Shown here piece after piece: positions 5,629 through 46,974 of a stretch of 54,421 bases of DNA. Source of the stretch: a virus; IMG/VR virus record IMGVR_UViG_3300021061_000218, positions 1 through 54,421 of that record; one strand, written 5' to 3'. The position numbers and the translations under genes were made by a program. Numbering within the stretch: position 1 is the first letter of the stretch; every line of letters begins with the position of its first letter. The notes under the pieces are model-generated. The model did no database searches, had not been told where the DNA came from, and saw only the letters and a program-made list of their open reading frames with translations.

Positions 5629-5635
5629 GTGTGTG

Positions 5636-31303: not shown

Positions 31304-31350
31304 GGTTAGGAAGCACCACGCACTCTACCACATTCACACCTCTCCAACAA
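31304..31350 (-). promoter_or_regulatory. Promoter with CTTCCTAACC start-site motif (minus)
   Basis: TTGTTG (31350-31345), 17 bp, TAGAGT (31327-31322) in extended form TGGTAGAGT, then eight bases and CTTCCTAACC (31313-31304). Its -35 directly abuts the -35 of the plus-strand promoter at 31351, forming a compact divergent pair. Confidence 0.75.
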
Positions 31351-31397
31351 TTGAGGAAACACGAATATTGTGCTAGGATATGCGCAACTTCCTAACC
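31351..31397 (+). promoter_or_regulatory. Promoter with CTTCCTAACC start-site motif (plus)
   Basis: TTGAGG (31351-31356), 17 bp, TAGGAT (31374-31379) in extended form TGCTAGGAT, eight bases, then CTTCCTAACC (31388-31397). The ATG at 31405 follows seven bases later. Confidence 0.75.
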
Positions 31398-31404
31398 ACG
31401 GCTG

Positions 31405-31734
31405 ATGCCAGAAAAGATGTCTTTGAGTGAGAAGCAATTGCGGACTCGTTTGACCAAAGCCTACGGAAAGAAATACCCCGTCATCGCTGCCCAAGCCGGC
31501 AAGTATTTGCAGTGCCGGGAATGCGGAGGTGATACGCACTTCCTGATCCTTCACCGCTGCGAAAGAGACTTCAAGAAGTATCTTGAGAGAAAGGTCTCCC
31601 TCACGGAAGAGGGCTTTTACTCAAACCTTAAGAGACTCACGACGCCCACCTACATGAACTTCGAGCTTCGTGAACGCCTCCGAGAGGGCAGAAACAAGAA
31701 ACCTCTTCCCCCACCCAAAGATGGCGAAGCGTAA
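31405..31734 (+). CDS. Hypothetical protein with CxxC motif
   Basis: A 109-residue basic protein with a helical N-terminus (SLSEKQLRTRLTKAYGKKYP), a CRECGGDTHFLILHRC segment (about 37-52) that could hold zinc with Cys/His ligands, and a Pro/Lys-rich end. Not recognised. It is the first gene of a four-gene plus-strand unit placed between terL and the possible small terminase, driven by the promoter at 31351-31379. Confidence 0.6.
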   Translation: MPEKMSLSEKQLRTRLTKAYGKKYPVIAAQAGKYLQCRECGGDTHFLILHRCERDFKKYLERKVSLTEEGFYSNLKRLTTPTYMNFELRERLREGRNKKPLPPPKDGEA

Positions 31735-31963
31735 GCTCATCGGCGTTAAGCAGAAGGTCTATGCCCGTGTCCACATGGACGTGCTCGAGAAGTACCCGCA
31801 GGTGATCGAAGCGATCTCTGAGGGCGATCTGGAACGCATCCAGAAGCGATGTGAAGAGATCCTCTTAAACGAAGAGGCGAAGGCTGCACACCCCATCGCC
31901 ATCGATCTCCTCCGTCTCTGTATCACTCTCCTTGTGGTTGAGGCAGAGAACCCTTTTGCCTAA
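31721..31963 (+). CDS. Small helical hypothetical protein
   Basis: An 80-residue protein read from ATG 31721 (MAKRKLIGVKQKVYARVHMD), overlapping the previous gene by 14 bases. It is helical with an amphipathic C-terminal segment (IDLLRLCITLLVVEAENPF). Function unknown. Its stop overlaps the next start (TAATG), indicating an operon. Confidence 0.55.
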   Translation: MAKRKLIGVKQKVYARVHMDVLEKYPQVIEAISEGDLERIQKRCEEILLNEEAKAAHPIAIDLLRLCITLLVVEAENPFA

Positions 31964-32292
31964 TGCCCTGTCTTGGCCTTCATCCGTCGGTTAAGACGCC
32001 CTGTGATACGTGTTACGGGGAGTTTGGAAGAGCCCGATGGTTTGTCACCGAAACTCATCTCTATGCGTGTGACCACTGCGCCCCCTTTCAGAATGGTGTT
32101 GAAGAGTACGCTCCAGAAATTGTCACGGTGAGGAGGGCCTTCAGGCTTCTGTGGGTCAGGTGGAAATTCAGGGGGTACAAGCTCTGCGGCAAGTGGAGGA
32201 AGGGCGCACACCATTGGACGCTTCTCAGTGCCCCTGCCTGGAAGTGCTTACTCAAGAAGCTTCTTCGATATTTCTTCCCCCGTTCTTCATGA
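31963..32292 (+). CDS. Putative zinc-binding basic protein
   Basis: A 109-residue protein with CDTCYGEFGRARWFV and YACDHCAP (two CxxC pairs, about 14-40), an arrangement that fits a zinc ribbon. The C-terminal half is rich in Arg, Lys and Trp. It may bind nucleic acid. It is joined to its neighbours by TAATG upstream and ATGA downstream. Confidence 0.55.
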   Translation: MPCLGLHPSVKTPCDTCYGEFGRARWFVTETHLYACDHCAPFQNGVEEYAPEIVTVRRAFRLLWVRWKFRGYKLCGKWRKGAHHWTLLSAPAWKCLLKKLLRYFFPRSS

Positions 32293-33122
32293 TCTGTGAG
32301 CCGTATATCTGTCTCGAGTCAAAGATATATCCGATTGGGGACATCCAATATCTCGATGTTCGAGAAGCGCACACAAGGCGGCCGTTTGGTCGCCCGGATA
32401 TCTACGTGAATCACGATAACACCTGGCAGAGATACGCAGACTTTGAGCGGGAGAAGCTGCGAGAGCTTATCGGGCCAGTGAAGATCGACATCGACTACTC
32501 CGGAGGTTATCGCCTCGTGAGAGAGAATGAGATCAGCGGACCGCTGATGGCAACGGAGAAGACGGCGAAGATCTGGCTCTCCGAAAAACTCACTGGCTAC
32601 TCCACCAAAGATTACAAGAACGACACCGAAGCAGACCGCCTCCTCATGAGAGCTGAGTTCCTCAAGGCTGTCTGTCTCAAGGAGGGGCTCTCGTGGCCAG
32701 GCGTAGAAGAGCCAAAGAGGATTTCCTCAGGAGGTGTCGATCTCGACTGGGGGGTCTATTGCCCCCCGGCAGAGAAGAAGGAGACCACGGCCAGCGAAGA
32801 GACCAAATTAGGTGATTTCTGCAGCATAATAGGCGTCAGTGAAGCCACGCCTGAGAAGGGGCTTACAGTCTGGGATTATTCCCGGGATGCTACGGGAGCA
32901 GACGGGAATGGAGAACTTGTGCTCGCCCCCAGGCGGGAGCCGTTCTGGCAGCGCATGAAGTTTGGGGCTCCGGTTTACAGGGACGACGCTGTGAACACGT
33001 ACCCGAGCCCGCCAGCCTCGGCTTTCATAAAAACACTCGTAAAAAGCTACTCTCTTGAGGAGTGGAAGGCGCTCATGGGAGAGAAGGAAGAGGTGGACTA
33101 CCTCCCCTTCCTGAAGAAATAA
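32289..33122 (+). CDS. Hypothetical protein, 277 residues
   Basis: The start at 32289 overlaps the previous stop (ATGA). The N-terminal 100 residues are mixed alpha/beta (YICLESKIYPIGDIQYLDVR); a central helical part (TEADRLLMRAEFLKAVCLKEG) is followed by a flexible region and a short C-terminal helix ending LPFLKK. No family, motif or membrane segment recognised. Confidence 0.6.
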   Translation: MICEPYICLESKIYPIGDIQYLDVREAHTRRPFGRPDIYVNHDNTWQRYADFEREKLRELIGPVKIDIDYSGGYRLVRENEISGPLMATEKTAKIWLSEKLTGYSTKDYKNDTEADRLLMRAEFLKAVCLKEGLSWPGVEEPKRISSGGVDLDWGVYCPPAEKKETTASEETKLGDFCSIIGVSEATPEKGLTVWDYSRDATGADGNGELVLAPRREPFWQRMKFGAPVYRDDAVNTYPSPPASAFIKTLVKSYSLEEWKALMGEKEEVDYLPFLKK

Positions 33123-33181
33123 TTTATTATAGAAACATGGGACCCCTTTCCTGCCTGCCGGGGGAGGGGTACTTTTGAAAC

Positions 33182-33451
33182 ATGCTGAATAACGGGAAGC
33201 TCATGGAAGAAGCGAAGGCGTACCTCACGCCTGAGGAGATAGCGATGGTAGAGGGGTGGGTGCCGCAACCTGGCACGACAAAGCTAGCGCACCTCGAGAT
33301 GGCCTCTGCGGTCGTTACAGCGGCGATGCATCGTCGTGCGCTTCTAGAGAGCGAGGAGAGAGGAAGAGCGTCCACAGCCCAAGCAAATCGCATAGCGGGG
33401 CTCGTGGGGATCGCTGTGGTCCTGCAGGCAATAGTGACTCTCTATTTCTAA
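33182..33451 (+). CDS. Small tail-anchored membrane protein
   Basis: An 89-residue protein: helical, charged N-terminal part and one C-terminal transmembrane helix (IAGLVGIAVVLQAIVTLYF). The leader has no Shine-Dalgarno sequence. Function unknown; topology fits a superinfection or lysis-modulating membrane protein, but nothing specific supports this. Confidence 0.5.
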   Translation: MLNNGKLMEEAKAYLTPEEIAMVEGWVPQPGTTKLAHLEMASAVVTAAMHRRALLESEERGRASTAQANRIAGLVGIAVVLQAIVTLYF

Positions 33452-33637
33452 TTTTTTATTTCTGGCTGTGTGAGGGGGGTGGCTCCAATTAAACACCGGG
33501 GGTGGCAAAACACAAACAGACAAGTGCAATTCCGGACTGCAAACATGGCTTGCTGCTGCGCAACTGTGGGCCTTTTCGCCAATTTGTTTACATAATATAG
33601 ATTAGTGAAAGTACATTCACACACAAGTGTGTTGTAC
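33452..33637. other. Convergent intergenic region with dif-half-like sequence
   Basis: No gene. Contains TGTTTACATAA at 33585-33595, which matches the reverse complement of the attL right arm in 10 of 11 bases and is followed by six bases and a weak second arm. An AGTAC ... ACACAC-TT-GTGTGT ... GTACT hairpin at about 33609-33638 could end transcription of the minus-strand gene. Confidence 0.4.
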
Positions 33638-34063
33638 TCACACGTCTACTGCATTCTCCTTCGCCTTCTGCTTCTCCTCTGCCTCTAGCATGCGTCGCAG
33701 TTCTTCCTCTGGAAGATGAGCCGGATCGACTCTTAAGAGGTTTATGGTGGTCTTCTGTGCGTCGCTGCCTATGAGCTCTGCGAACTTCGCCAAGTTCTCT
33801 GATGCCTTCATTTGATCTGAGTGCTTCACGTCGTCTTTCACATCTCTCTTCAAGATCCCAAGCCAGTAATCGAGCACTCCTGCTCCAATTTCACGCTTGA
33901 GCGCCGCATTCCCCAATTTCGCCTCCAAATCAGCTATACGTGCCCCCTTCGCCAAAGGAGCGTGGCCGCCGTAGTAGTAGGGTGGCGTATGCGGCGGGGT
34001 CCCCTTCTTACTCCCCGCTGGCACCACCTCAGGCCACTTATGCTCGTCTCCAGCTGGCGTCAT
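33638..34063 (-). CDS. Possible terminase small subunit
   Basis: A 141-residue protein with a Pro/Gly/His-rich N-terminus (1-45), a helical centre (ADLEAKLGNAALKREIGAGV, about 48-110) and an acidic/charged helical tail (PEEELRRMLEAEEKQKAKE). The layout - DNA-binding N-part, oligomerising helices, charged tail - and first place in the late minus-strand direction would fit TerS. However, it is separated from terL by four plus-strand genes and no helix-turn-helix is certain. Confidence 0.35.
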   Translation of the reverse strand: MTPAGDEHKWPEVVPAGSKKGTPPHTPPYYYGGHAPLAKGARIADLEAKLGNAALKREIGAGVLDYWLGILKRDVKDDVKHSDQMKASENLAKFAELIGSDAQKTTINLLRVDPAHLPEEELRRMLEAEEKQKAKENAVDV

Positions 34064-34144
34064 AATGTGCGTGTGTGTGAAATTTCTCCTCCTATGTACC
34101 ACACTTGCCTAAAGCCTGCAATCCCCCTCTCTTTATACTTAGCT

Positions 34145-34153
34145 ATTATACCA
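34145..34153 (-). promoter_or_regulatory. Extended -10 promoter for the minus-strand gene at 34063
   Basis: TGGTATAAT on the minus strand, a perfect extended -10. No good -35 lies 16-18 bases upstream. It is divergent from the strong plus promoter that begins 20 bases away. Confidence 0.55.
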
Positions 34154-34172
34154 TATTATTGATATTTTGTCC

Positions 34173-34217
34173 TTGACACTCAAGGGAGGAGGTATATACT
34201 AAAGATACTTCCTAACC
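34173..34217 (+). promoter_or_regulatory. Strong early promoter with CTTCCTAACC motif
   Basis: TTGACA (34173-34178), 16 bp, TATACT (34195-34200), seven bases, then CTTCCTAACC (34208-34217). This is the closest to consensus of the motif-bearing promoters, and it drives a structured RNA rather than a protein gene directly. Confidence 0.85.
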
Positions 34218-34412
34218 GTTCTGGTTGTCATCACCGCCAAGCAGGTCACACCGTAAGACTCAACCTGCACACCTCAATCGGACTAGAGAGCGCTACGTGC
34301 CAAGCGTAGCACATGAGATAGGAACGACTATCGTCCTCATTGCCTCGCTCTTGTCGCCACTGAGGGAAGAATAAGCTGCACCACTCGGTGCCGCTTTCGC
34401 TTCCCTCTTTTT
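34208..34412 (+). ncRNA. Structured ~205-nt RNA with own promoter and terminator
   Basis: It begins at the CTTCCTAACC start site. Clear helices are GCAGGT/ACCTGC (34241-34268), GCTACG/CGTAGC (34292-34310) and the two-part stem ATGAG-GATAG/CTATC-CTCAT (34313-34340). It closes with GAGGGAAG/CTTCCCTC enclosing CACC/GGTG and ending in TTTTT (34362-34412). There is no good coding frame. It is probably an abundant early phage RNA; no Rfam-type family recognised. Confidence 0.7.
34362..34412 (+). terminator. Terminator of the early structured RNA
   Basis: GAGGGAAG (34362-34369) pairs with CTTCCCTC (34400-34407), with an internal CACC-ACTC-GGTG hairpin, followed by TTTTT. Read-through would be needed for genes downstream unless they have another promoter. 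Confidence 0.7.
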
Positions 34413-34494
34413 GCCGTTCCACATTCCTGTGTGGGACGAGTAACTTCCTTGGTCCTTCGGACCTCGGAAGAACGCCCATCCGGGCGAACTTCCT
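34413..34494 (+). other. Cluster of three stable hairpins
   Basis: In order: GTTCCACA/TGTGGGAC (34416-34437), CTTCC..GGTCC-TTCG-GGACC..GGAAG (34444-34470) and CGCCC-ATCC-GGGCG (34473-34486). They are followed by CTTCCTACCC, a variant of the start-site motif, just before a small membrane-protein gene. They may form the leader of that gene or an RNA-processing region. Confidence 0.55.
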
Positions 34495-34507
34495 ACCCCC
34501 TCTCTAT

Positions 34508-34642
34508 ATGACGTGCTTCACGTCTCGTCTCTTTATCGTTCTGTATGGTTCTGCGCTGATTGCGCTTGTACTCGCAGGGGCTCTCGGGCCTATCGACTTG
34601 AGCCCCTCTCCGCTCGCCTCTCCGTTCATTGATCTTCTGTAA
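34508..34642 (+). CDS. 44-residue membrane protein
   Basis: It starts at ATG 34508 after a pyrimidine-rich leader containing CTTCCTACCCCC. One transmembrane helix (LFIVLYGSALIALVLAGALG) is followed by a short Pro/Ser-rich tail. A hairpin GACGTG-CTT-CACGTC begins two bases inside the gene and could hide the start codon. Role unknown; small early membrane proteins often act in superinfection exclusion. Confidence 0.45.
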   Translation: MTCFTSRLFIVLYGSALIALVLAGALGPIDLSPSPLASPFIDLL

Positions 34643-34663
34643 ATCCCCTCCCCGTCCTAGACT

Positions 34664-35005
34664 ATGACAATGCAAACGAGACCTCCCACCGCTGAAGAGC
34701 TGAAGGCATTCGTTCAGATTCATGCACACCAGAACCAGACAAGCCTTGTGTTACTCCTTCTCGAAAGCGTGGTCATAACGCACGATGATATCCGCAATCT
34801 CTACGTTGAAACTCCAGATGGCGGCGAAGACGAGCAAGACATTACTGAATGGATCGTGGTGAGCTCAAAGCTCCTCGAAACCCTCGAAGCCCTCGGGCAA
34901 CCTGTTCTCATCTCTGACCTAGGCTCCTGGTGGGGCAGGATGGAGTCAGGTCATGACATCTCTGAAGACAAGATCATCAAAGAAGCCTGGCTCAAGATGC
35001 AATAA
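34664..35005 (+). CDS. Hypothetical early protein
   Basis: A 113-residue acidic protein. Helices at 10-45 are followed by a mixed region with SLVLLLLESVVITHDDI and a C-terminal WWGRMESGHD. No family, signal or membrane segment is clear; the Leu/Val stretch is too short and is part of a helix. First soluble product of the 34.6-38.1 kb plus-strand unit. Confidence 0.55.
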   Translation: MTMQTRPPTAEELKAFVQIHAHQNQTSLVLLLLESVVITHDDIRNLYVETPDGGEDEQDITEWIVVSSKLLETLEALGQPVLISDLGSWWGRMESGHDISEDKIIKEAWLKMQ

Positions 35006-35057
35006 GCCCCCTCACTCATACAAACATTTATCTCCGTCCTCCCTTTCCCTCTTTCGT

Positions 35058-35360
35058 ATGTTCACCTTTAAGTTTTACGTGAACGTGAAGACTGACAAAC
35101 ACGGCCGCAAATTAGACGATCTTGATGCACGCACCTCTCGTGCCCTGGACTACCTCTCGTCTCTCTACGGTCACGTCACCTATTCCCTGGACCGTGGTAG
35201 CTACAAGATCGGCCGAAAAACACACAGATCTGAGCCCTGCGTGGTCTTCACTGTCACCACCTCATTGACGCTTGATCATGGCGAGAGCTCTGCAAAGGCC
35301 CTCAAAAACATCTTCGACCAGATGCACATTCTCTTTGTCTACGAGAAGCAGAAGAAATAA
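35058..35360 (+). CDS. Hypothetical early protein, alpha/beta
   Basis: A 100-residue basic protein from ATG 35058, which follows a pyrimidine-only leader (CCCTCTTTCGT). It alternates beta strands (MFTFKFYVNVKTD, CVVFTVTTSLTL) with helices and ends EKQKK. The fold suggests a small ferredoxin-like domain, but no family is recognised. Confidence 0.55.
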   Translation: MFTFKFYVNVKTDKHGRKLDDLDARTSRALDYLSSLYGHVTYSLDRGSYKIGRKTHRSEPCVVFTVTTSLTLDHGESSAKALKNIFDQMHILFVYEKQKK

Positions 35361-35399
35361 CGAATCCGCATTTGCGCACTCCTCCTTTATCCCCCCTCT

Positions 35400-35819
35400 A
35401 TGTCGAATGACGTGGACTCTTTGGGCGATGTTCGTCGCTCCTCCCAACTCCCAACTTCTATGCCCCTTCCCACCGGAACGGGCTACTCCCATCAGCTTAT
35501 GCCCCAACCCATTACCCCCGGCCTCTGGCACGTAGACGAGGACGGCCTGAACTACGCCATCGTGGCCCCGAATAAGCCTGTCTCCTTCCTCACGCACGAG
35601 AAGCCCATCATTGCCATCTGCCAGCTCAGAAGTGATGCGCAATTGATGGCCGCCGCTCCCATCCTCCTCCAGCGCCTGAAGATGTCTCTCAAAGATGCCG
35701 AGGACGCCATTGAGAGTCCGTCAGCTGCGGTTCATTTCAATTGGGTGAGCATTGCAGAGGATATCCGATACGTGATTGCTCTCGCTGAATCTCACTTCCC
35801 CTTTAATCACCATGAATAA
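35400..35819 (+). CDS. Phage protein with the 'LMAAAPxLL' module
   Basis: A 139-residue protein. The N-terminal 35 residues are Pro/Ser-rich; then comes a domain PGLWHVDEDGLNYAIVA ... DAQLMAAAPILLQRLKMSLKD, a module common in phage proteins of unknown function. The C-terminal helix carries the only Trp/aromatic cluster. It overlaps the next gene by eight bases. Confidence 0.6.
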   Translation: MSNDVDSLGDVRRSSQLPTSMPLPTGTGYSHQLMPQPITPGLWHVDEDGLNYAIVAPNKPVSFLTHEKPIIAICQLRSDAQLMAAAPILLQRLKMSLKDAEDAIESPSAAVHFNWVSIAEDIRYVIALAESHFPFNHHE

Positions 35820-36015
35820 CAATCGCACTGTCCAAGACTTCTTAAACGATGTCCCGGATCCCATGCCGCCTATGACGCTCTCTATGTCTCGGCGTGAGCT
35901 TCTAGGCCGCTCTCGACTCGTCACACCCCCAACCCCATTCATCCCCTTTGGCCCTGCCCTCTTCATGGGGCTCTGCGCCCTTGCGGTCTCGTCTCTCTTT
36001 TCATTCATCTTCTAA
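35812..36015 (+). CDS. Small tail-anchored membrane protein
   Basis: A 67-residue protein from ATG 35812, inside the end of the previous gene. The N-terminal part is soluble and Pro-rich; the C-terminus is one membrane helix (FGPALFMGLCALAVSSLFSFIF). Function unknown. Confidence 0.5.
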   Translation: MNNNRTVQDFLNDVPDPMPPMTLSMSRRELLGRSRLVTPPTPFIPFGPALFMGLCALAVSSLFSFIF

Positions 36016-36037
36016 TTCCCCACTCCCCCTTATCATT

Positions 36038-36235
36038 ATGGTTACCCTCCTCACCGCTGGAATCCTCGTCTTTGGTCATCTGGTCCCCCTCACCTTCTGC
36101 CAGGGCACGACAGCCTCTGGCCTCTCTTATTCCGCCTACATTGAGGCGCATGCTACGACTCCTCAGCATAAGCAGGTTTGGACGGAGCAGGTAAAGCGTG
36201 GACAGATCCACATCTGTGGTAATTCCACTCTTTGA
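36038..36235 (+). CDS. Small secreted or membrane protein
   Basis: A 65-residue protein starting MVTLLTAGILVFGHLVPLTFCQG, a hydrophobic N-terminus that could be a signal sequence or membrane anchor, followed by a soluble part with two further Cys/His positions. The leader is C/T-rich (CCCCACTCCCCC). Not recognised. Confidence 0.5.
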   Translation: MVTLLTAGILVFGHLVPLTFCQGTTASGLSYSAYIEAHATTPQHKQVWTEQVKRGQIHICGNSTL

Positions 36236-36302
36236 GAGACACGTCAATTATCATTTACGAAATACAATGGTACGGTATCACAGAACTTTCCCACTTCACC
36301 GC

Positions 36303-36674
36303 ATGCCCCGACGCAAGATTAGACTCCCCGCCCCCGAGGAGGACGTCATTCGCAAGCCCCCCGTCAAAGCCCTCATCCGTAAATGGAAGAAGGGTGTGCA
36401 TCAGGGCGGTATCGTTGTCGTCTTCCCGGAGGTCCCAACCGATATCCCAGAAACTTGTAAGATCTATCAGCACATCCCCGATCTCGGTGCTGCCTCCTAT
36501 CACGCCATTGAGTCCATGACGGTCCAGGCTACGGAGAAAGAAGCCCGCCAGTACTTAGTCGAGCTCGCCCGCATGGGCATCCACTTCGAAGTCGCCAAAC
36601 GCATTTCTAAGAAGATGGACGAAGTCAGAAAGCGCAGATTCGAGAGCCGGGACTTCGGGATGATGCTGGTATAA
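36303..36674 (+). CDS. Hypothetical basic protein
   Basis: A 123-residue protein from ATG 36303 (MPRRKIRLPAPEED). This was chosen over ATG 36267 because of the pyrimidine-rich leader. A basic first third (ALIRKWKKGVHQGG) is followed by a helical domain (ATEKEARQYLVELARMGIHF) that could bind nucleic acid. No family recognised. Confidence 0.55.
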   Translation: MPRRKIRLPAPEEDVIRKPPVKALIRKWKKGVHQGGIVVVFPEVPTDIPETCKIYQHIPDLGAASYHAIESMTVQATEKEARQYLVELARMGIHFEVAKRISKKMDEVRKRRFESRDFGMMLV

Positions 36675-36696
36675 TACCCGCCCATCCACCTCTCTC

Positions 36697-36879: not shown

Positions 36880-36939
36880 GGAATGCCCTACCCTTTGCTC
36901 GGCCATTAGGCCGCAGTGTAATTCTTCCTACCCACACCA

Positions 36940-37236
36940 ATGCTAAAAAAGATTGCGCCGCTCTTTGCGGTGTTGTTTGTTTTCGCTCTCTTCATCATCA
37001 TCGGAGGCCGCACATTCGCCACAAGCGAACTGGAGGCGGCTAAGCAGCGCTACATCGAATCTGTTCGTGGCAGCTGCATCACTATCGCAAATCGCACGCT
37101 CGACTGCTACGAAGGAGACAAGAGCGAGTGCGAGAAGCTGAAAGACTCCCAGAACTGGTTCATGTCTGAATTCGGGAAGTCTCCCGACTTCGTGTGTCAG
37201 GACCCCGGGGCGTATTTTTTAGTCTTCGGGGCCTGA
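36940..37236 (+). CDS. Exported or membrane-anchored small protein
   Basis: A 98-residue protein with an N-terminal hydrophobic segment (IAPLFAVLFVFALFIIIGG) and an outer part with four cysteines (SCITIA, DCYEG, ECEKL, VCQDP) likely to form two disulfides. It overlaps the start region of the following amidase gene, so it may be an accessory factor (spanin-like or lysis regulator) for that enzyme. The leader contains CTTCCTACCC close to the ATG. Confidence 0.55.
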   Translation: MLKKIAPLFAVLFVFALFIIIGGRTFATSELEAAKQRYIESVRGSCITIANRTLDCYEGDKSECEKLKDSQNWFMSEFGKSPDFVCQDPGAYFLVFGA

Positions 37237-38135: not shown

Positions 38136-38138
38136 GTA

Positions 38139-38166
38139 AAAAGCCCCTCCTCACGGTGGGGCTTTT
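38139..38166. terminator. Bidirectional terminator
   Basis: AAAAGCCCC (38139-38147) pairs with GGGGCTTTT (38158-38166), a perfect 9-bp stem with A- and T-runs on the two sides, so it can work on both strands. It separates the plus-strand amidase unit from the convergent minus-strand gene at 38176. Confidence 0.85.
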
Positions 38167-38175
38167 ATTGTGCCC

Positions 38176-38385
38176 TCAGATGCGAATCAGCATCCGTCCG
38201 GCACTATCCCTCACTCCTCGGTCCCATTCCGGGGCGAAGAGTCGTTGATCCCCTTCCGCCTCGATGTCGCTCTCACGGAAAGAGTGTTCGAGCGAGACCA
38301 AGCGGGAGAGGTCGCCTTCGGCGAAGCCCTCTTCTTCTGTTTCCATGTCTGTGTCTAATTCAAGTTCATCCACTTCACACTGCAT
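38176..38385 (-). CDS. Small very acidic protein
   Basis: A 69-residue protein with about 22 Asp/Glu residues, mostly in the first 45 (VDELELDTDMETEEEG). Small acidic early phage proteins can mimic DNA or block host enzymes, but no family match is visible. Its ATG follows CTTCCTAACC by six bases, downstream of a well-formed promoter. It ends against the bidirectional terminator. Confidence 0.6.
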   Translation of the reverse strand: MQCEVDELELDTDMETEEEGFAEGDLSRLVSLEHSFRESDIEAEGDQRLFAPEWDRGVRDSAGRMLIRI

Positions 38386-38391
38386 AATAGT

Positions 38392-38438
38392 GGTTAGGAA
38401 GTGGACGGAATAATGCCAGATAAGTTACGAATGATCAA
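38392..38438 (-). promoter_or_regulatory. Promoter with CTTCCTAACC motif (minus)
   Basis: TTGATC (38438-38433), 17 bp, CATTAT (38415-38410) with TG one base upstream (TGGCATTAT), eight bases, then CTTCCTAACC (38401-38392). Drives the acidic protein gene. Confidence 0.75.
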
Positions 38439-40507: not shown

Positions 40508-40528
40508 GATGAAACAAGCGGAAGAAAA

Positions 40529-41125
40529 TTAGATCGTGCCGAGGAGCGTCTCTGCGTGCTGTGCCTCCGTAAGAGCGATAGCTCTTGCCTTCTCTACCCC
40601 TCCGGGGGTATTGAAGTCGACGTTGCCAGAGGACAGAAGAGCATTCAGGAAGCCGCAGTAGCTCTTGATCTTCCCGAAGTCGGATCCAGTCAGATTGCGG
40701 CCGGTAGCGGGGGCGTAATGCGTGACAGGCTCATTGCTGAAGGCAGACTCGACGTCGGCGGGGGTGAGCGAGGGTGCACGGCTAAGAGTCTCTGGCGTTG
40801 GCTCTGCATCGTAGTAATCTCGTCCGCCTTCCTTCGTGTTTCGCTTGAATTGCACATCCAATTCATCGCCCACCTTGGCCGTCCAGCGGACGGTCGTCTT
40901 CTGCTTCGTCGCAGGGTCGTAGTTGTATTTCGTCATGAGGCGGTTCTTCTGGTCCTCGTTGAGGTCCCAGAAATACGTCTCGCCGTTGTAGGTCAGACGG
41001 AACGGATACTTCGCTCCGAACTTTCCGTCCTTCGCAGCAGACGGGACATGGGCAATCGTCAGGCGGCGGGGAGTGTTCATCAAATACGTCCCGTCTTCCT
41101 GCTTGAAAAGATCTTGGACCTTCAT
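40529..41125 (-). CDS. Hypothetical protein, early minus-strand unit
   Basis: A 198-residue protein. The first 100 residues are beta-rich (RRLTIAHVPSA, YPFRLTYNGETYFWDL, TTVRWTAKVGDELDVQF), possibly an OB-like barrel, followed by a flexible region and a C-terminal helical end. A single-strand DNA-binding role would suit its position near replication genes but is only a guess. The leader carries CTTCCTAACC at 41146-41137; the nearest promoter (TTGCGA, 17 bp, TGATAATAT) is some 35 bases further up. Confidence 0.5.
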   Translation of the reverse strand: MKVQDLFKQEDGTYLMNTPRRLTIAHVPSAAKDGKFGAKYPFRLTYNGETYFWDLNEDQKNRLMTKYNYDPATKQKTTVRWTAKVGDELDVQFKRNTKEGGRDYYDAEPTPETLSRAPSLTPADVESAFSNEPVTHYAPATGRNLTGSDFGKIKSYCGFLNALLSSGNVDFNTPGGVEKARAIALTEAQHAETLLGTI

Positions 41126-41157
41126 AAAACGTGTGGGGTTAGGAAGTTACTCCCTTC

Positions 41158-41340
41158 TCAGGGCAGACGGATATTATCAGAAAACCACAGATCTCGCAAT
41201 TTACGGATCCGAGGTTTGTTATGAAACATGAATGCCCAAACTTCACGCTTGTTGAACGTCCCGATTTTTCTGTATTCAGTGTATTTGTATCCCATCCGCA
41301 CCAGTGAGTGCGCTAGTTCTCCGTCTTCAATTGGCAGCAT
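41158..41340 (-). CDS. Small basic hypothetical protein
   Basis: A 60-residue protein, rich in Arg/Lys and aromatic residues (MGYKYTEYRKIGTFNKREVW AFMF), probably a small alpha/beta nucleic-acid-binding domain. It overlaps the end of the regulator gene by 14 bases. Not recognised. Confidence 0.5.
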   Translation of the reverse strand: MLPIEDGELAHSLVRMGYKYTEYRKIGTFNKREVWAFMFHNKPRIRKLRDLWFSDNIRLP

Positions 41341-41704
41341 CTGGTGTTGGTGTGGGGGGCGGAGGTGGCGGTGGTGGACTGGCGTACGTCTGAATTCCCA
41401 TCTGCTGAATTTCTTCGAACGTCGGGAAGATGTCTGTCGGGAATTGCAGAGAGTCGTTCCACGGGAACGTGATGCCCCGGGGGAATAACAGCCGCCTGTT
41501 CCTGCGAGCTCTGTCTGGCGTCACTTCGAGGTAGCCTTTCTTCACGAGTGCCTTGAGCTTGATGCCGTAGGCCTTGTCCTTGCCGCCGAGGAAATCGGCC
41601 AGGTCCGCTTGCGTGGGTGAGAAGCGGAACCGGAACTGGATCATCCTGACGGCGTAGAGAATTTGCTTCTCACGCTCTGTGAGCTCGGGTTTGATGTTCG
41701 ACAT
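41327..41704 (-). CDS. LexA-like winged-helix regulator with polyproline tail
   Basis: A 125-residue protein. Residues 7-70 match the winged-helix N-terminal domain of LexA-type repressors: LTEREKQILYAVRMI, then the helix-turn-helix FSPTQADLADFLGG and LKALVKKGYLEVTPDRARR. There is no peptidase domain; instead the C-terminus runs into eight prolines (about 111-118) and PTPTPDAAN. Its own promoter carries a version of the start-site motif (CTTCCTAGCC), as expected for an autoregulated repressor. It is the best candidate for the protein binding CTTCCTAACC. Confidence 0.7.
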   Translation of the reverse strand: MSNIKPELTEREKQILYAVRMIQFRFRFSPTQADLADFLGGKDKAYGIKLKALVKKGYLEVTPDRARRNRRLLFPRGITFPWNDSLQFPTDIFPTFEEIQQMGIQTYASPPPPPPPPTPTPDAAN

Positions 41705-41707
41705 AGT

Positions 41708-41755
41708 GGCTAGGAAGTTAAGGCTCAAGGTAACACAGTTCTTTATTTTTTTCAA
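41708..41755 (-). promoter_or_regulatory. Promoter of the regulator gene with CTTCCTAGCC
   Basis: TTGAAA (41755-41750), 17 bp, TACCTT (41732-41727) in extended form TGTTACCTT, nine bases, then CTTCCTAGCC (41717-41708). The motif differs from consensus at one position, which could lower affinity and set the order of repression. Confidence 0.75.
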
Positions 41756-41867
41756 CGAGCCCGCAATGACGCCTGCTCTCTGTCCCAAGAGTTGCGCCGT
41801 TGTGGGCCCGTCAAAAAGAAAGTACCAAAGAAAAATTAATACTGTTATTAAACTGTTTTTATACTAG

Positions 41868-41899
41868 ATACTTAAAACCCTAAGAGGGGTTTTAAGTAT
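41868..41899. terminator. 13-bp perfect hairpin
   Basis: ATACTTAAAACCC (41868-41880), loop TAAGAG, GGGTTTTAAGTAT (41887-41899). A-T-rich outer part and GC-rich top; it can act on either strand. It lies in an AT-rich gap beside a polypurine tract and upstream of the regulator gene's promoter. Confidence 0.7.
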
Positions 41900-41972
41900 T
41901 TCTCTTTTGCTTCTCTCTCTTCTTCTTTCTTTTGGTACTTTTCTTTCTTCTTCTCTCTCTTCATTTTCTCTT
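41900..41972 (-). other. Polypurine tract related to the RNA at 30841-30914
   Basis: On the minus strand these 73 bases are nearly all purine. They share the run AAGAAAGAAAAGTACC / AAAGAAAGAAG with the plus-strand copy near 30866-30890 (there AAGAAAGAAAGAACC). Both tracts are followed by a strong hairpin and both lie next to divergent promoters. The surrounding 41790-42000 region is the most AT-rich gap in the element and borders the primase-helicase, so an origin function is also possible. Confidence 0.5.
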
Positions 41973-41982
41973 AAACACGTCG

Positions 41983-42111
41983 AAAAAAGTGGTGCCCCCG
42001 CAGTAACTTCCTAACCGCTATGGCTGTTGCCAATGCAGTGAAGGCTACTACGCCTTCGTTGCTCGGGAGCACCACTTTGCTTCCGTCGCACTAGTGACAG
42101 CGGTTAGGAAG
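41983..42111 (-). ncRNA. Structured ~130-nt RNA carrying an inverted start-site motif
   Basis: It begins at CTTCCTAACCGCT (42111-42099) downstream of a promoter. It contains GAAGGC-GTAGTA-GCCTTC and, near its end, AGCGGTTAGGAAG (42019-42007), the exact complement of its own first 13 bases. It ends with AAAGTGGTGC ... GCACCACTTTTTT, a terminator-like stem and U-run at 41983. The 5'-end pairing and the terminator stem cross each other, so the RNA may switch between two folds. Confidence 0.6.
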
Positions 42112-42154
42112 CATTAGCAAGATACGCCCTCTGCTGTTTAAGTCAACAGAGGGC
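42102..42154 (-). promoter_or_regulatory. Promoter overlapping a hairpin, with CTTCCTAACC motif
   Basis: TTGACT (42146-42141), 16 bp, TATCTT (42124-42119), seven bases, then CTTCCTAACC (42111-42102). The -35 lies in the loop of GCCCTCTG/CAGAGGGC (42154-42126), a hairpin 20 bases after the primase-helicase stop. The same arrangement recurs at 46920-46957. Confidence 0.7.
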
Positions 42155-42173
42155 ATACATGTTTTGTTCGAGG

Positions 42174-44012
42174 TTATTTGCCTGTTTGTAGTGCGTGCGC
42201 CACGTTCGCAGCGTCATCGCTAGACCCCTCAAGTCGGAAGGACGAATGCTTCCAGTCGTAGATCATGTTCAATCTCACACGACGCTGGAGCGTCTTGCTC
42301 TTGCGAACATCGACGATGCAGTGCGGGTCGTAGGTGCCAAGAGACTTGTTTCGGCTGATCAGGATCGACACGTCTGCGGACTGGTTCAGCGGCCCCCCGC
42401 CCTCGAACGGGATATAGCCCTGCTGTTCGTGCAGGTCGGTTAAGCCTTCTTTGCCGAGCTGACACACGTCGATGATGGCAACGTCATGCCGCTGGGCGAG
42501 TGACTGCAGGTTCTTGCCGTACTCTCTGGCCCAGTTGTAAACCTCGGGCTTCATGTCGATCATCTGGCTGTAGTCCAGCATGATGAAGTCCACGCCCCCG
42601 TCGGTCTTCGCCTTCGCAATCAGGTCTTCCATCTGGCGCAGGGAGTTGCTGGTGTGACGCACGTCGAAAATCTTCAGGCCAGAATAGATTTGCAGCGATG
42701 CCTCTGACGGGCTTCGCTTCTGCTCCAGGATGTCCATGTACTTGCAGCCAAGCTGGATCGAGATCAGGTGGGCCAGGACTTCGGTGGTGTCCACTTCGGT
42801 CGAGAAGATAATGCCCCGGTAGCCACTGCGAAGCAGCTGGTCTGCTAGGAAGTAGCCGAACTTGGATTTGCCGGTGCCGAAGAGCGCCCCGATGCGGGTG
42901 ACTTTCTTGCGAGCCAAAAGCCGGAACGGGGTGAGCTCCGGATTGATGTGCAGACAGTTCGGCGGGGAGGACTGGAGTTCCTTCAGGATCTCCTCGATGC
43001 CGTACGAGGTGTTTTCGGCCCCAGGCTTCTTGTCGATTCTGACCTGCGGGTAGTGGTCCTTGAACCAGAAGAACGTGTCTCGGGTGGAGAGGCCTTTCAC
43101 CGCCTTCACGAACTCGAACGGCGCAAAGCCGTTCGCAGTCTTCGGGATGTGGTCAGAGCCGCCGTGCATGACGATATTTCGTTCTGGAATTATGTAAGTG
43201 GCCTTGTGCTTGCCGCCGGAGGGGTCCCGGAAATTCTTGCCATTCGGCATTAGCTCCCAGCCCATTACCCGGCAGACAATCTCGCTTATCGGCAGCTTTT
43301 GGATAGCATTGTAAGTATCATTGCGAACTTTGTCTTCGGGTGGCGAAGATTGAGCCGCAGTCTCACGCCTCTCAGTGATACGTCTCTCCCCCGTCGCAAC
43401 CATCTCCGAAAGACTTATTTTCGTATCCTGGAACTTTAGGATCCTAACTTGCGATGGGGGGTTGTGCTTTCGGTTGAAGGATCCCGGCAGCCGTCCGATA
43501 CGGGCAACGTTCACACACGAATTATCAAGCTTCTCATCGGTAAGCAGCTCCGCCTGTTCGATGAGCACCCGGAGGCCTTCTTTCCAGGCATTTTTGTCTG
43601 AAATCTCTATGGCTTGTTTGCCAAAGTAGTAAACATGAATGCCGTTCCCGGAGAAAATTATATATCTCCATTTCGCCAAGACCGCATCTGCGCTGAGGAG
43701 CTCAGGGAGCGTGTTCTCGCCCCAGTAGACAATGTCCTCGTCTTCAAGATATGGCGAGCCTTTGCGGATATCGAAGTCGAAGTAGAAATAGTTCTTGAGC
43801 TTGATATCGTCATCCTCGGCCCTCTCGTTCCTAATGCCCGGGGAGTCTTTAACCCCCGCCATAAAGAACAAGTTGCTTCTTGGATTTGCCTCCACGAACT
43901 TCTCGAGCTCCTGAGGAGACCAGCTTTTTATACAAGCATCGACCCTGTTCAGTGGGCCTGCCTGGATGACGCAACCGGGAAGTGAAATGTCTGTCAGAAA
44001 CTTCTGCAGCAT
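42174..44012 (-). CDS. Primase-helicase (AEP primase fused to DnaB-like ATPase)
   Basis: A 612-residue replication protein. The N-terminal archaeo-eukaryotic primase domain has YFDFDIR (77-83, metal-binding acids), SGNGIHVYYF (121-130) and RIGRLPGSFNRKH (171-183). A linker domain (about 245-325) resembles the degenerate zinc-finger part of phage primases. The C-terminal RecA-type helicase has Walker A GALFGTGKS (375-383), Walker B VDFIMLDYSQMI (475-486) and a later QSADVSILISRN. It should prime and unwind DNA for phage replication. Its promoter carries the start-site motif and is divergent from groES. Confidence 0.88.
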   Translation of the reverse strand: MLQKFLTDISLPGCVIQAGPLNRVDACIKSWSPQELEKFVEANPRSNLFFMAGVKDSPGIRNERAEDDDIKLKNYFYFDFDIRKGSPYLEDEDIVYWGENTLPELLSADAVLAKWRYIIFSGNGIHVYYFGKQAIEISDKNAWKEGLRVLIEQAELLTDEKLDNSCVNVARIGRLPGSFNRKHNPPSQVRILKFQDTKISLSEMVATGERRITERRETAAQSSPPEDKVRNDTYNAIQKLPISEIVCRVMGWELMPNGKNFRDPSGGKHKATYIIPERNIVMHGGSDHIPKTANGFAPFEFVKAVKGLSTRDTFFWFKDHYPQVRIDKKPGAENTSYGIEEILKELQSSPPNCLHINPELTPFRLLARKKVTRIGALFGTGKSKFGYFLADQLLRSGYRGIIFSTEVDTTEVLAHLISIQLGCKYMDILEQKRSPSEASLQIYSGLKIFDVRHTSNSLRQMEDLIAKAKTDGGVDFIMLDYSQMIDMKPEVYNWAREYGKNLQSLAQRHDVAIIDVCQLGKEGLTDLHEQQGYIPFEGGGPLNQSADVSILISRNKSLGTYDPHCIVDVRKSKTLQRRVRLNMIYDWKHSSFRLEGSSDDAANVAHALQTGK

Positions 44013-44022
44013 GGCGAATAGT

Positions 44023-44068
44023 GGTTAGGAAGTCCCCGCATTCTAGCACGGCGCAGTTGTGGTTCCAA
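44023..44068 (-). promoter_or_regulatory. Promoter of primase-helicase with CTTCCTAACC motif
   Basis: TTGGAA (44068-44063), 17 bp, TAGAAT (44045-44040) in extended form TGCTAGAAT, seven bases, then CTTCCTAACC (44032-44023). It is divergent from the promoter at 44113. Confidence 0.8.
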
Positions 44069-44112
44069 TTCCCACAAGACAATTAATATTGGTTCCTCGC
44101 AAATGCAGAAAA

Positions 44113-44158
44113 TTGAAAAAAATGTCGAAGCGTGCTAAGATGTTCGCACTTCCTAACC
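44113..44158 (+). promoter_or_regulatory. Promoter of the groES unit with CTTCCTAACC motif
   Basis: TTGAAA (44113-44118), 17 bp, TAAGAT (44136-44141) in extended form TGCTAAGAT, seven bases, then CTTCCTAACC (44149-44158). The groES ATG follows nine bases later. Confidence 0.85.
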
Positions 44159-44167
44159 GTTCATTCC

Positions 44168-44494
44168 ATGCAGCTTGAGGTAGAATTTAGCCCGCTCGGT
44201 GACCATGTGCTTGTCGAGCCTTTAGACAAGACGCAGGTGACGGCGTCGGGCATTGTCCTCACGGCAGCAGCGAATGACGAGATGCCGGAACAGGCCACTG
44301 TCGTTGCCGTCGGGAGGGGCGGAACGTACAAGGACTGTCCGGATCCCTCACAGTTTCTCACGGACGGGCAGACCGTAGTGATCAACAAGTGGGCCGGCGA
44401 GGAGATGAAGATCAAAGACCTGCAGGGCAAGGAGCACACGTTAAAGCTCCTGCACCTTGCGCAGATTTACGGTATTTCGAAGAAAACGAAGTGA
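44168..44494 (+). CDS. groES: GroES-type co-chaperonin
   Basis: A 108-residue Cpn10 protein: PLGDHVLVEPLDKTQ at the N-terminus, TASGIVLT (start of the mobile loop), then EQATVVAVGRGG and a beta-rich end with TVVINKWAGEEMKI. Cpn10 forms a heptameric lid on GroEL; phage versions such as T4 gp31 replace the host lid to fold capsid proteins. It is a little longer than the usual ~97 residues. ATG 44168 is set by the promoter and leader. Its stop overlaps the next start (GTGA). Confidence 0.92.
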   Translation: MQLEVEFSPLGDHVLVEPLDKTQVTASGIVLTAAANDEMPEQATVVAVGRGGTYKDCPDPSQFLTDGQTVVINKWAGEEMKIKDLQGKEHTLKLLHLAQIYGISKKTK

Positions 44495-45288
44495 GTCCTG
44501 TCGATCTTTCACAGAAACGCTGTTTCGTAGACAAGAGGTTCTATCCGCTCGTCCATCCGGAGACCGGGGAGAGCAAGAAGGGCCCCTCTGTCACCACTAT
44601 CCTGGATTTCGTCCGTGAGAAGGGATTTCTGGACCAGTGGGAAAGCGAATTCATTGAACTGTGGGGAGTCGACGGCTACAAGAAATTCCTCGAAAAGAAA
44701 GCCGCTGAAGGGACCATGCTCCACTCGCTGATAGAGCTCTATCTGAATCGAGTGTTGCTGAAGGACCCCACCCCGATCGAATGGACGGAGGGTATCTCCG
44801 GTTTTGTCTGGAAGAAGTTCCTCAACTTCAAAGCTTGGTTCGAGGAGCATCGACCGAACATCCTCTGGATGGAGCGAACAGTGCAGTCTTGGGAACTTGG
44901 CTACGGCGGGAGGGCAGACCTCGGCCTAGAAATGACCAGGGACACTGACGACTACAAGAAGGGGCAACTCTTCGTCCACGATCACAAGTCATCGAAATCT
45001 GCGACGTCGAAACATCTGGAACAGGATGCAGCCTATATCTACGCCCTGGAAGAAGAGACGGGGCTGAAGTACCACGGAGTTGTAGTGCCGTTTGGAACGC
45101 CGACGAGAAAGGGTTACAAGCCGGTCTACGTGCGCCGTGATGTCCCCTACCAGAAGGGAAAGACGAAGTCTGAATACGAGTATTACCTAGAGGCGTTCCT
45201 CCTGAAAAAGAAGCTCTTCGATCACTACTTCGACGAGATGTTGCCGGAGGATCAGTGGCTGGATGTGTTTGTTACCCCGAAGTTCTGA
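44491..45288 (+). CDS. RecB/Cas4-like PD-(D/E)XK nuclease
   Basis: A 265-residue protein from GTG 44491, overlapping the groES stop (GTGA). The core shows GTMLHSLIELYLN (about residues 70-82), GGRADLGLE, then VHDHKSSKS, where D-x-K is the catalytic pair, and QDAAYIYALEE, the Q-x3-Y helix of RecB-family nucleases. It probably processes phage DNA in recombination or degrades DNA ends. It starts the coupled run nuclease - RNA ligase - Nmad1-like protein. Confidence 0.8.
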   Translation: MSPVDLSQKRCFVDKRFYPLVHPETGESKKGPSVTTILDFVREKGFLDQWESEFIELWGVDGYKKFLEKKAAEGTMLHSLIELYLNRVLLKDPTPIEWTEGISGFVWKKFLNFKAWFEEHRPNILWMERTVQSWELGYGGRADLGLEMTRDTDDYKKGQLFVHDHKSSKSATSKHLEQDAAYIYALEEETGLKYHGVVVPFGTPTRKGYKPVYVRRDVPYQKGKTKSEYEYYLEAFLLKKKLFDHYFDEMLPEDQWLDVFVTPKF

Positions 45289-46196
45289 TGTTCAAGAAGT
45301 ACCCGCACCTTGAAAGATTCGGCACGGATGAAGTGGAGGATATCCAGTTCGGCGAGTGCTATGTCTTCCCGAAGATCGACGGCACGAACGCCCAGCTGTG
45401 GAGCGAAGAGGGATTGCTAAGAGCAGGCAGCCGCAACAGAACGCTATCACTCGACAGTGACAATGCTGGCTTCTGCGCCTATGCGGTCTCGAATCAAAAG
45501 ATTGTGAAATTCTTAGAGAACAATCCACAATTGCGCCTCTTTGGAGAGTGGCTCGTCCCCCACTCGCTTAGGACCTACAGAGAGGAGGCCTGGAGGAAGT
45601 TCTACATCTTTGATGTCGCAACGGTGACAAGAGAGAGCGGAAATGACGAGCAGATCTATTTCATGCCCTACGGAGAGTACAAACCCCTCCTTGAGGCCGC
45701 CGGCCTCGACTACATTCCGGCGCTCTGCAAGATCACGAATGGCACTCTAGAGCAGTTCGAGGAAATGCTAGAGAAGAACACCTTCCTCATTAAGGACGGA
45801 GAAGGATTCGGCGAAGGCATCGTTATAAAGAACTACGCCTTCAAGAACAAGTTCCATCGAACCACCTGGGCAAAGATCATTCGCAATGAGTTCAAAGAGA
45901 CTCACGCTCACGCCTTCCGGTTGGCAGCGATAACCGGACAGAAGCTCCTTGAAGAAGAGATTGCAAAGGAGTTCGTCACGAAGTCTCTTGTGGAGAAGGA
46001 ATACGAGAAGATCAAGCTAGAGGATGGATGGAGCTCGAAGCTCATTCCCCGCCTCCTCAACACCGTCTTCCACAACATCGTGACAGAGGAAACGTGGAAC
46101 ATCTTAAAGAAGTACGAGTCTCCGAAGATCGACTTCAAGATGCTGCGCACCTACACATACAGGGTAACGAAAGAAGTTGCTCCCCATCTATTTTAA
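45288..46196 (+). CDS. RNA ligase, Rnl2-like
   Basis: A 302-residue nucleotidyltransferase. Motif I is PKIDGTNAQLW with the AMP-accepting Lys29; then LRAGSRNR (motif Ia region), RLFGEW (motif III, 84-88), EGIVIK (motif IV, 176-181) and WAKIIRNEFKE (motif V, Lys196). The C-terminal ~100 residues form a helical domain. Such enzymes reseal broken RNA, for example tRNAs cut by host defences. The start overlaps the previous stop (TGATG). A PNKP-type phosphatase is encoded 2.6 kb further on. Confidence 0.88.
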   Translation: MFKKYPHLERFGTDEVEDIQFGECYVFPKIDGTNAQLWSEEGLLRAGSRNRTLSLDSDNAGFCAYAVSNQKIVKFLENNPQLRLFGEWLVPHSLRTYREEAWRKFYIFDVATVTRESGNDEQIYFMPYGEYKPLLEAAGLDYIPALCKITNGTLEQFEEMLEKNTFLIKDGEGFGEGIVIKNYAFKNKFHRTTWAKIIRNEFKETHAHAFRLAAITGQKLLEEEIAKEFVTKSLVEKEYEKIKLEDGWSSKLIPRLLNTVFHNIVTEETWNILKKYESPKIDFKMLRTYTYRVTKEVAPHLF

Positions 46197-46531
46197 TGGA
46201 GAACACTGCCGACCCCGTCGATCTCCAGCCGACCAAGAAGCCTTATAGGGATCTTGGGATCGAAGTCGGCGAATTAGTGCAGGAGAAAAACGAGGCTTAT
46301 GGGGATAGCTTTGGCAAAACTCCGGCAGTTTTGAAGATTATGTACCCGCAAGGCATCCGGCCCGATCAATACGACGATGTTCTCACCCAAATCCGAGTCC
46401 TGGATAAGCAATTTCGAATTGCTACGGACAAGGATGCCCTAGGAGAAAGCCCGTGGATGGATGTCGCCGGTTACGGGCTCCTTGGGTGGTCAAACGATAT
46501 AAAAGCAAAAGAATCATCTTCCAATAGTTAA
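46196..46531 (+). CDS. Nucleotide-modification-associated domain 1 (DUF1599) protein
   Basis: A 111-residue protein with the family pattern LVQEKNEAYGDSFGKT ... VLTQIRVLDKQFRIATD ... SPWMDVAGYGLLG. DUF1599/Nmad1 proteins occur in phages, often near enzymes of modified nucleotides; the exact activity is not settled. The start overlaps the RNA ligase stop (TAATG). Confidence 0.8.
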   Translation: MENTADPVDLQPTKKPYRDLGIEVGELVQEKNEAYGDSFGKTPAVLKIMYPQGIRPDQYDDVLTQIRVLDKQFRIATDKDALGESPWMDVAGYGLLGWSNDIKAKESSSNS

Positions 46532-46535
46532 GTGT

Positions 46536-46895
46536 ATGGCAGAACCGTACTACAACAACTTCACATACTCCGGCTTCTCCGACTGGGCCATCGCATCAGT
46601 CAGCTACGACGGCACTTGTACCGTCTCTTTCTCTACCCCTTCCCCCCTTTCCTTTCTTATGGGCACCTGTACAGATCTCGTAAAGAAATTCCGTAACTTC
46701 CTCTCCGACGCAGACACGAAGGTCTTAAAGAAGCAGAACTTCTTGGATGACTGTGGCAACATCACCGATGCCGGCATCCGAGTCTGGCTTGAAGATCAGA
46801 TGCGCAAAGAGGAGGTGAGAGCTCGCCTTGTCGAGATTGCCAAAGACCTCCAGAAGGAGGACGACAAAGATGCGAAGAAGTGCACGGACTGTTAA
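46536..46895 (+). CDS. Hypothetical protein, possibly two modules
   Basis: A 119-residue protein. Residues 1-40 (FTYSGFSDWAIASVSYDG) recall a shortened KTSC-type beta module. From Met43 there is a common small phage domain (KKFRNFLSDADTKVLKKQNF LDDCGNITDAG) and a charged helical tail. The Met43 codon at 46662 follows a pyrimidine-only leader, so a 77-residue product may be the main or only one. It ends just before a terminator/promoter overlap. Confidence 0.55.
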   Translation: MAEPYYNNFTYSGFSDWAIASVSYDGTCTVSFSTPSPLSFLMGTCTDLVKKFRNFLSDADTKVLKKQNFLDDCGNITDAGIRVWLEDQMRKEEVRARLVEIAKDLQKEDDKDAKKCTDC

Positions 46896-46919
46896 TAGCA
46901 TTCGGACACGAAGCGAAGG

Positions 46920-46949
46920 AGCGGACAATTGAGAGTCCGCTCTTTTTTT
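46920..46949 (+). terminator. Terminator overlapping a promoter
   Basis: AGCGGAC - AATTGAGA - GTCCGCT followed by CTTTTTTT: a perfect 7-bp stem and T-run that should end the 44.1-46.9 kb transcript. The loop contains the TTGAGA -35 of the next promoter. Confidence 0.85.
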
Positions 46950-46974
46950 GCTATAGTATGTTCACTTCCTAACT
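46929..46974 (+). promoter_or_regulatory. Promoter of the large structured RNA
   Basis: TTGAGA (46929-46934), 17 bp, TATAGT (46952-46957) in extended form TGCTATAGT, seven bases, then CTTCCTAACT (46965-46974), one base from the common motif. Confidence 0.8.

What the first reader, a model, noticed from the sequence alone, without database searches (positions are those of the whole stretch)
31304..46974. A ten-base motif, CTTCCTAACC, at the predicted start of nine phage promoters
At 31313-31304(-), 31388, 34208, 38401-38392(-), 41717-41708(-, one change), 42111-42102(-), 44032-44023(-), 44149 and 46965 (one change), the motif begins 7-9 bases after a -10 box that follows a TTGNNN and a 16-17 bp spacer. 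It therefore lies at +1 to +10 of the transcript. It marks the acidic protein, regulator, primase-helicase, GroES unit and three structured RNAs, but not the capsid, terminase-portal, HNH or rightmost promoters. It is either an operator overlapping the start site or an mRNA 5'-end tag. This looks like an unreported phage-wide regulon.
Basis: seen in the sequence. Interest (0 to 1): 0.88.

Follow-up and report, generated by a model that had tools for sequence, protein, structure and literature searches.

The report
Shared start tag on phage transcripts
A temperate phage of Peribacteria (tiny bacteria that have largely lost the usual ribosome-binding signal) puts the same ten letters at the very start of at least nine of its transcripts and also encodes a small RNA carrying their exact complement, which suggests one shared switch for many phage genes, probably acting on RNA.

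Summary
CTTCCTAACC occurs 11 times exactly (10 distinct; one lies in a duplicated contig end; about 0.06 expected) and is the most over-represented 10-mer in the window. All nine claimed sites sit 7-9 nt after a -10 box with a TTG -35 box and a 16-17 nt spacer, preceded by a purine, so the motif is at about +2 to +11. That RNA has an intrinsic terminator (fold z -6.5), carries its own 5' tag, and contains the complement of the tag.

The window is a phage integrated at the dif site of a Peribacteria (Patescibacteria) host. Those hosts show no Shine-Dalgarno signal, many leaderless genes, and a 16S tail without CCUCC. The tag is rare in 74 Peribacterales genomes, and no other phage examined has the promoter-tag set.

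Best reading: an RNA-level 5'-leader tag used for Shine-Dalgarno-free initiation and addressable by an anti-tag RNA. Main rival: an oriented operator/stoperator set for the wHTH regulator 41327-41704. No relative exists to test conservation; nothing is experimentally shown.

The parts
31304..31313 (-). tag, exact; promoter TTGTTG-17-TAGAGT, gap 8; ATG of 60-aa CxxC protein (31114-31296) follows 7 nt later
31388..31397 (+). tag, exact; promoter TTGAGG-17-TAGGAT, gap 8; ATG of 31405-31734 follows 7 nt later
34208..34217 (+). tag, exact; strongest promoter TTGACA-16-TATACT, gap 7; no ATG near; starts an RNA with an intrinsic terminator near 34410
34207..34413 (+). predicted ~205-nt structured RNA, own tag unpaired in the MFE fold; possible decoy or attenuator
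   Evidence: z -3.35
34489..34498 (+). tag variant CTTCCTACCC without promoter, 9 nt before ATG of a 44-aa ORF
36924..36933 (+). tag variant CTTCCTACCC without promoter, 6 nt before ATG of 36940-37236
38392..38401 (-). tag, exact; TTGATC-17-CATTAT, gap 8; ATG of acidic protein 38176-38385 follows 6 nt later
41137..41146 (-). tag, exact, 11 nt before ATG of 40529-41125; no promoter at that spacing
41708..41717 (-). tag variant CTTCCTAGCC; TTGAAA-17-TACCTT, gap 9; ATG of regulator follows 3 nt later
41327..41704 (-). regulator with LexA-type winged-helix DNA-binding domain; candidate operator-binding protein in the rival model
41984..42112 (-). anti-tag RNA: 5' tag, 5' hairpin, terminator stem with U run, internal AGCGGUUAGGAAG
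   Evidence: z -6.5
42007..42016 (+). inverted tag copy = anti-tag of the 42112(-) RNA
42102..42111 (-). tag, exact, at the 5' end of the anti-tag RNA; TTGACT-16-TATCTT, gap 7
44023..44032 (-). tag, exact; TTGGAA-17-TAGAAT, gap 7; ATG of primase-helicase 42174-44012 follows 10 nt later
44149..44158 (+). tag, exact; TTGAAA-17-TAAGAT, gap 7; ATG of GroES-like protein follows 9 nt later
46965..46974 (+). tag variant CTTCCTAACT; TTGAGA-17-TATAGT, gap 7; 23-aa ORF then ~550 nt mostly non-coding RNA
3226..3235 (+). tag, exact, about 75 bp inside the phage from the dif junction, upstream of the integrase; no promoter seen; repeated at 54370-54379 in the duplicated contig end
21477..21486 (-). partial tag ATTCCTAACC, 7 nt before ATG of 20864-21469 in the structural operon, no promoter
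5634..5643 (-). partial tag with TTCCTAAC core at 5635-5642, 6 nt from the core to ATG of a 66-aa ORF, no promoter seen

Best explanation
CTTCCTAACC (with flanks R...NYT) is a phage-specific RNA leader tag. Host-type promoters place it at +2..+11 of at least nine transcripts, giving short (about 14-22 nt) Shine-Dalgarno-free leaders in front of replication, regulator and chaperonin genes. A few copies lie directly before internal start codons. In a host with no Shine-Dalgarno signal the tag serves as the start-proximal leader. Because the sequence is identical everywhere, all tagged transcripts can be addressed together, most likely by the 42112-41984(-) RNA, whose internal AGCGGUUAGGAAG is complementary to every tag and would cover the initiation region (silencing, or protection). 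Shown by sequence: motif, register, promoter and terminator matches, complementarity, host translation signals. Inferred: transcription start sites, expression of the RNA, pairing in trans, and the sign of the effect.
For: Fixed register: 9 promoters with unrelated -35/spacer sequence, gap 7-9, each P<=0.004, purine before the tag in 9/9. Start-codon link: TTCCTAAC occurs 14 times, 10 of them 4-12 nt before an ATG opening an ORF of at least 23 aa (one of these is the 24-aa ORF opposite the anti-tag RNA); 7 lie upstream of a curated set of 48 gene starts against 0.19 expected; 41137, 21477 and 5634 have no promoter there. Anti-tag: exact 13-nt complement inside a terminated RNA, full fold -65.4 kcal/mol, z -6.5; at 110 nt the nascent RNA instead forms the tag:anti-tag stem, -51.9, z -6.2. 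Tag sites fill most of the best duplex partners of the anti-tag in the genome. Variation inside the tag (A->G at position 8, C->T at position 10, Y at +12, R at -1) keeps pairing with the fixed anti-tag through G-U; only column +11 and part of +13 do not. Host setting: Shine-Dalgarno 8/263 genes, equal to control; 56/226 ATG genes leaderless-like; pyrimidine tracts (TTCCCC 15 vs 1.7) before the others; 16S tail without CCUCC. Phage genes also show no Shine-Dalgarno signal.
Against: The anti-tag's flanks beyond the 10-mer add only modest complementarity to other tags (P 0.023; the CAT triplet ranks 17th of 64) and it pairs best with its own 5' end, so the complement could be a cis device or an inverted DNA site. 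Two tagged RNAs (34207, 42112) have no start codon near, which a pure translation signal does not need. No relative for covariation. No transcript data. The host itself does not use this sequence (0 of 226 leaders).
Confidence: 0.45

Rival explanations
1. The motif is an asymmetric DNA operator, also used as a stoperator between genes, bound by the phage repressor (winged-helix protein 41327-41704), which thereby represses its own promoter and the early genes during lysogeny.
For: Non-palindromic conserved block of about 13 bp, oriented with transcription, in promoters and in short intergenic gaps, including the regulator's own promoter. The regulator has a LexA-type DNA-binding domain above the Pfam cut-off. 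Cluster A mycobacteriophages have such a system (PMC9283540). The prophage is integrated at dif, so an immunity system is expected.
Against: All nine promoter copies keep one register to the start site within 2 nt, which an operator does not need. The 42007 copy is inverted inside a terminated RNA. LexA-type domains usually bind palindromes as dimers (general knowledge).
Confidence: 0.3
2. The motif is only a strong, phage-optimised translation leader for a host lacking Shine-Dalgarno signals, with no dedicated regulator.
For: Host and phage leaders are pyrimidine-rich and lack Shine-Dalgarno sequences; the tag is 3-12 nt before ATG at coding sites; several Peribacteria 16S tails read CUUCCUUACC, 9 of 10 identical to the tag.
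Against: Exact 10-nt identity exceeds what a loose pyrimidine signal needs; no host gene examined uses it; tagged RNAs without a start codon; the clade nearest the host has a less similar tail, CUCCUUACC.
Confidence: 0.12
3. The motif is a transcription element: an initially transcribed sequence recognised by RNA polymerase with a phage factor, marking one temporal class of promoters.
For: Constant distance to the -10 box; other phage genes lack it.
Against: Copies away from promoters and next to start codons; the anti-tag RNA.
Confidence: 0.1

Closest known systems
Mycobacteriophage L5 / cluster A operators and stoperators
   Same: asymmetric ~13-bp site repeated across the genome, oriented with transcription, in promoters and intergenic gaps (PMC9283540)
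   Different: fewer copies, fixed at the transcript start, an inverted copy inside a terminated RNA, regulator with a LexA-type domain; binding not shown
Phage P4 CI RNA
   Same: a small phage RNA complementary to leader sequences of its own phage (PMC4825925)
   Different: P4 CI RNA pairs with two sites around its own gene and causes termination; here one complement matches the 5' ends of many separate transcripts, and expression is only predicted
Phage P1/P7 C4 antisense RNA
   Same: antisense control of phage genes by a small RNA (general knowledge)
   Different: no Rfam match; different genomic setting; many targets
Leaderless and non-Shine-Dalgarno initiation
   Same: host and phage lack Shine-Dalgarno signals
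   Different: the phage uses a short leader with a fixed tag, while many host genes are leaderless

Membership tests
L5-type operator/stoperator system | asymmetric conserved site of about 13 bp in multiple copies | tested here: met
   (10 distinct exact copies plus variants)
L5-type operator/stoperator system | sites oriented with transcription in promoters and short intergenic gaps | tested here: met
   one exception, 42007
L5-type operator/stoperator system | bound by a monomeric repressor with HTH plus stoperator domain | not testable with these tools
   candidate 41327-41704 is LexA-DBD type; binding needs experiment
P4 CI / P1 C4 type antisense RNA | small untranslated RNA with promoter and terminator | tested here: met
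   by prediction only:
P4 CI / P1 C4 type antisense RNA | complementarity to leader transcripts of the same phage | tested here: met
P4 CI / P1 C4 type antisense RNA | matches the described RNA families (Rfam) | tested here: not met
   no match at gathering scores
P4 CI / P1 C4 type antisense RNA | pairing changes expression and confers immunity | not testable with these tools
   experiment needed
Shine-Dalgarno leader | GGAGG-like sequence 5-12 nt before the start codon, complementary to the 16S tail | tested here: not met

The most novel reading that the evidence does not exclude
A Patescibacteria phage runs an RNA-only regulon: one 5'-terminal tag on its early transcripts, one anti-tag RNA that silences them together in lysogeny, and a tag-displaying RNA from the strongest phage promoter (34207+) that soaks up the anti-tag to release the block.
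Probability: 0.12. Interest if true: 0.9.

Novelty: new variant of a known kind. Interest (0 to 1): 0.62.

Why it matters
Gene control in phages of candidate phyla radiation bacteria appears little studied, and the host lineage seems to start translation without Shine-Dalgarno pairing. A shared start tag with a matching anti-tag RNA would be a simple way to switch a whole phage gene class with one RNA, and it can be tested from existing metatranscriptomes and with reporter assays in ordinary laboratory strains.

Tried and rejected
Relatives: primase-helicase, terminase, 22547-23539 and RNA ligase searched in viral contigs gave no relative except one terminase at 34%; megablast against annotated phages gave nothing; terminase hits in Peribacterales genomes (best 37%, L188) carry no exact tag. 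Inverted-pair scan: 13 loci, most of them tandem CTTCCTAAC-type repeat or palindromic elements without the promoter layout; judged unrelated. Single tagged promoter-like hits in L011/L077 and in G045 (L255) were not followed further. G006 helicase relative (42%): its contig shows a recombinase-like gene and ordinary cellular genes by eye and no tag, so it was not taken as a relative. Loop presentation of the tag at 3226: fold not better than shuffles (z -0.82). Strong adaptation of the anti-tag flanks to the mRNA start codons: weak. 16S tail mimicry: striking in several genomes but weaker in the clade nearest the host. Rfam: none.

Full report
Observation. CTTCCTAACC is present at all nine stated places, with the stated strands and two one-base variants. 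It is the most over-represented 10-mer of the window (11 copies, 0.06 expected; 19 matches with up to one mismatch against 2.58 expected). At the nine places a TTG -35 box, a 16-17 nt spacer and a -10 box end 7-9 nt before the motif; each promoter score is reached by at most 0.4% of random positions. A purine precedes the motif in all nine and the conserved block runs on to N-Y-T, so the RNA most likely begins R-CUUCCUAACC.

What was missed. An exact copy at 41137(-) and variants at 21477(-), 5634(-), 34489(+) and 36924(+) stand 6-11 nt before start codons without a promoter at that spacing. TTCCTAAC occurs 14 times, 7 of them upstream of 48 curated starts where 0.19 are expected. An exact copy lies near the integrase (3226). 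An inverted copy at 42007 lies inside the RNA that starts at 42112(-).

The setting. Positions 1-2669 are host DNA: the end of phosphoglycerate kinase (recognised by eye), a Baseplate_J-like membrane protein and a DUF218 protein. The membrane protein is 46-59% identical to proteins in 18 genomes, nearly all labelled Peribacteria or Peregrinibacteria. The host side joins the phage in a dif-like site that is found once in each of 37 of 74 Peribacterales genomes. The window is therefore most likely a temperate phage of a Peribacteria host. The 127-bp repeat at the contig end is probably an assembly overlap (inference).

Host translation. In 400 kb of one host relative, Shine-Dalgarno motifs are no commoner before starts (8 of 263) than in a control stretch; 56 of 226 ATG genes have a -10 box 5-8 nt before ATG, the signature of leaderless mRNA; the others show pyrimidine tracts. 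The place of the anti-Shine-Dalgarno in 16S reads CACUUCCUUACC or similar (CAUUUCCUUACC, CAUCUCCUUACC, UAUCUCCUUACC); the first two forms lack CCUCC, and in the last two only CUCC remains. The tag equals the first form in 9 of 10 letters, but the clade closest to this host has a CUCCUUACC form, so this likeness is noted and not used as proof. The tag itself is rare in host genomes: 52 exact copies in 74 Peribacterales genomes, in most genomes fewer than the reversed control.

The anti-tag RNA. From a TTGACT-16-TATCTT promoter, 42112 to about 41984(-) gives an RNA with a terminator stem and U run, z -6.5. Its 5' tag is held in a small hairpin while an internal AGCGGUUAGGAAG, the exact complement of the tag, is partly unpaired; at 110 nt the alternative is a long tag:anti-tag stem. 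Tag sites make up most of the strongest duplex partners in the phage. Base changes among tags keep G-U or Watson-Crick pairing at all core positions. Against over-reading: the flanks add only modest trans complementarity (P 0.023).

Mechanism. I favour an RNA-level tag: fixed to the transcript start, next to start codons even without promoters, and matched by an anti-tag RNA. The strongest rival is an oriented operator/stoperator set for the winged-helix regulator, as in cluster A mycobacteriophages (PMC9283540). P4 CI RNA is the nearest RNA precedent (PMC4825925). Neither pairing nor protein binding is shown. No close relative was found in the collections searched, so conservation could not be tested.

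Second leader class. Structural genes mostly carry ACACAAAC or similar just before ATG: ACACAAAC occurs 8 times, 5 of them within 30 nt of a curated start against 0.11 expected. This fits classes of leaders in a phage without Shine-Dalgarno signals; that they are temporal classes is inference.

Verdict. Real, well above chance, more extensive than reported; mechanism open between RNA and DNA level with the RNA level preferred.

Noticed in passing
window 3126-3175 and 54270-54319: Phage-host junction in a dif-like site (TTAACATAAAATGCATTATGTAAAC); the phage end shares the core and one arm. The same site occurs once in each of 37 of 74 Peribacterales genomes, so this phage appears to integrate at dif with the integrase 3343-4353.
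   Followed up: partly
L211-L222 (16S 3' ends), L223-L242: Peribacteria genomes lack CCUCC at the 16S tail, show no Shine-Dalgarno enrichment and have many leaderless genes.
   Followed up: partly
window 27891, 24954, 23554, 17982, 16590, 11931 (all -): ACACAAAC-type leader directly before structural genes, a second leader class.
   Followed up: partly
window 47096-47309: tRNA-Leu-like 5' part (GGGGCGTGGCGGAATAGGTAGACGC) and a possible matching 3' end (CCGCCCC) about 200 nt later; ARAGORN and Rfam find nothing.
   Followed up: partly
window 28002-30368: Large terminase with an intein-like insertion (weak Hint and intein-splicing matches).
   Followed up: no
window 45255-46196 and 48782-49288: RNA ligase and polynucleotide kinase genes, a possible RNA repair pair.
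   Followed up: no
L198-L205, L207-L210: Other viral contigs carry tandem CTTCCTAAC-type repeats around GC-rich alternating sequence, perhaps origins or binding arrays.
   Followed up: no
L188: Peribacterales contig with a terminase 37% identical to this phage's; no tag; GGCGGGGTTT is over-represented there.
   Followed up: no
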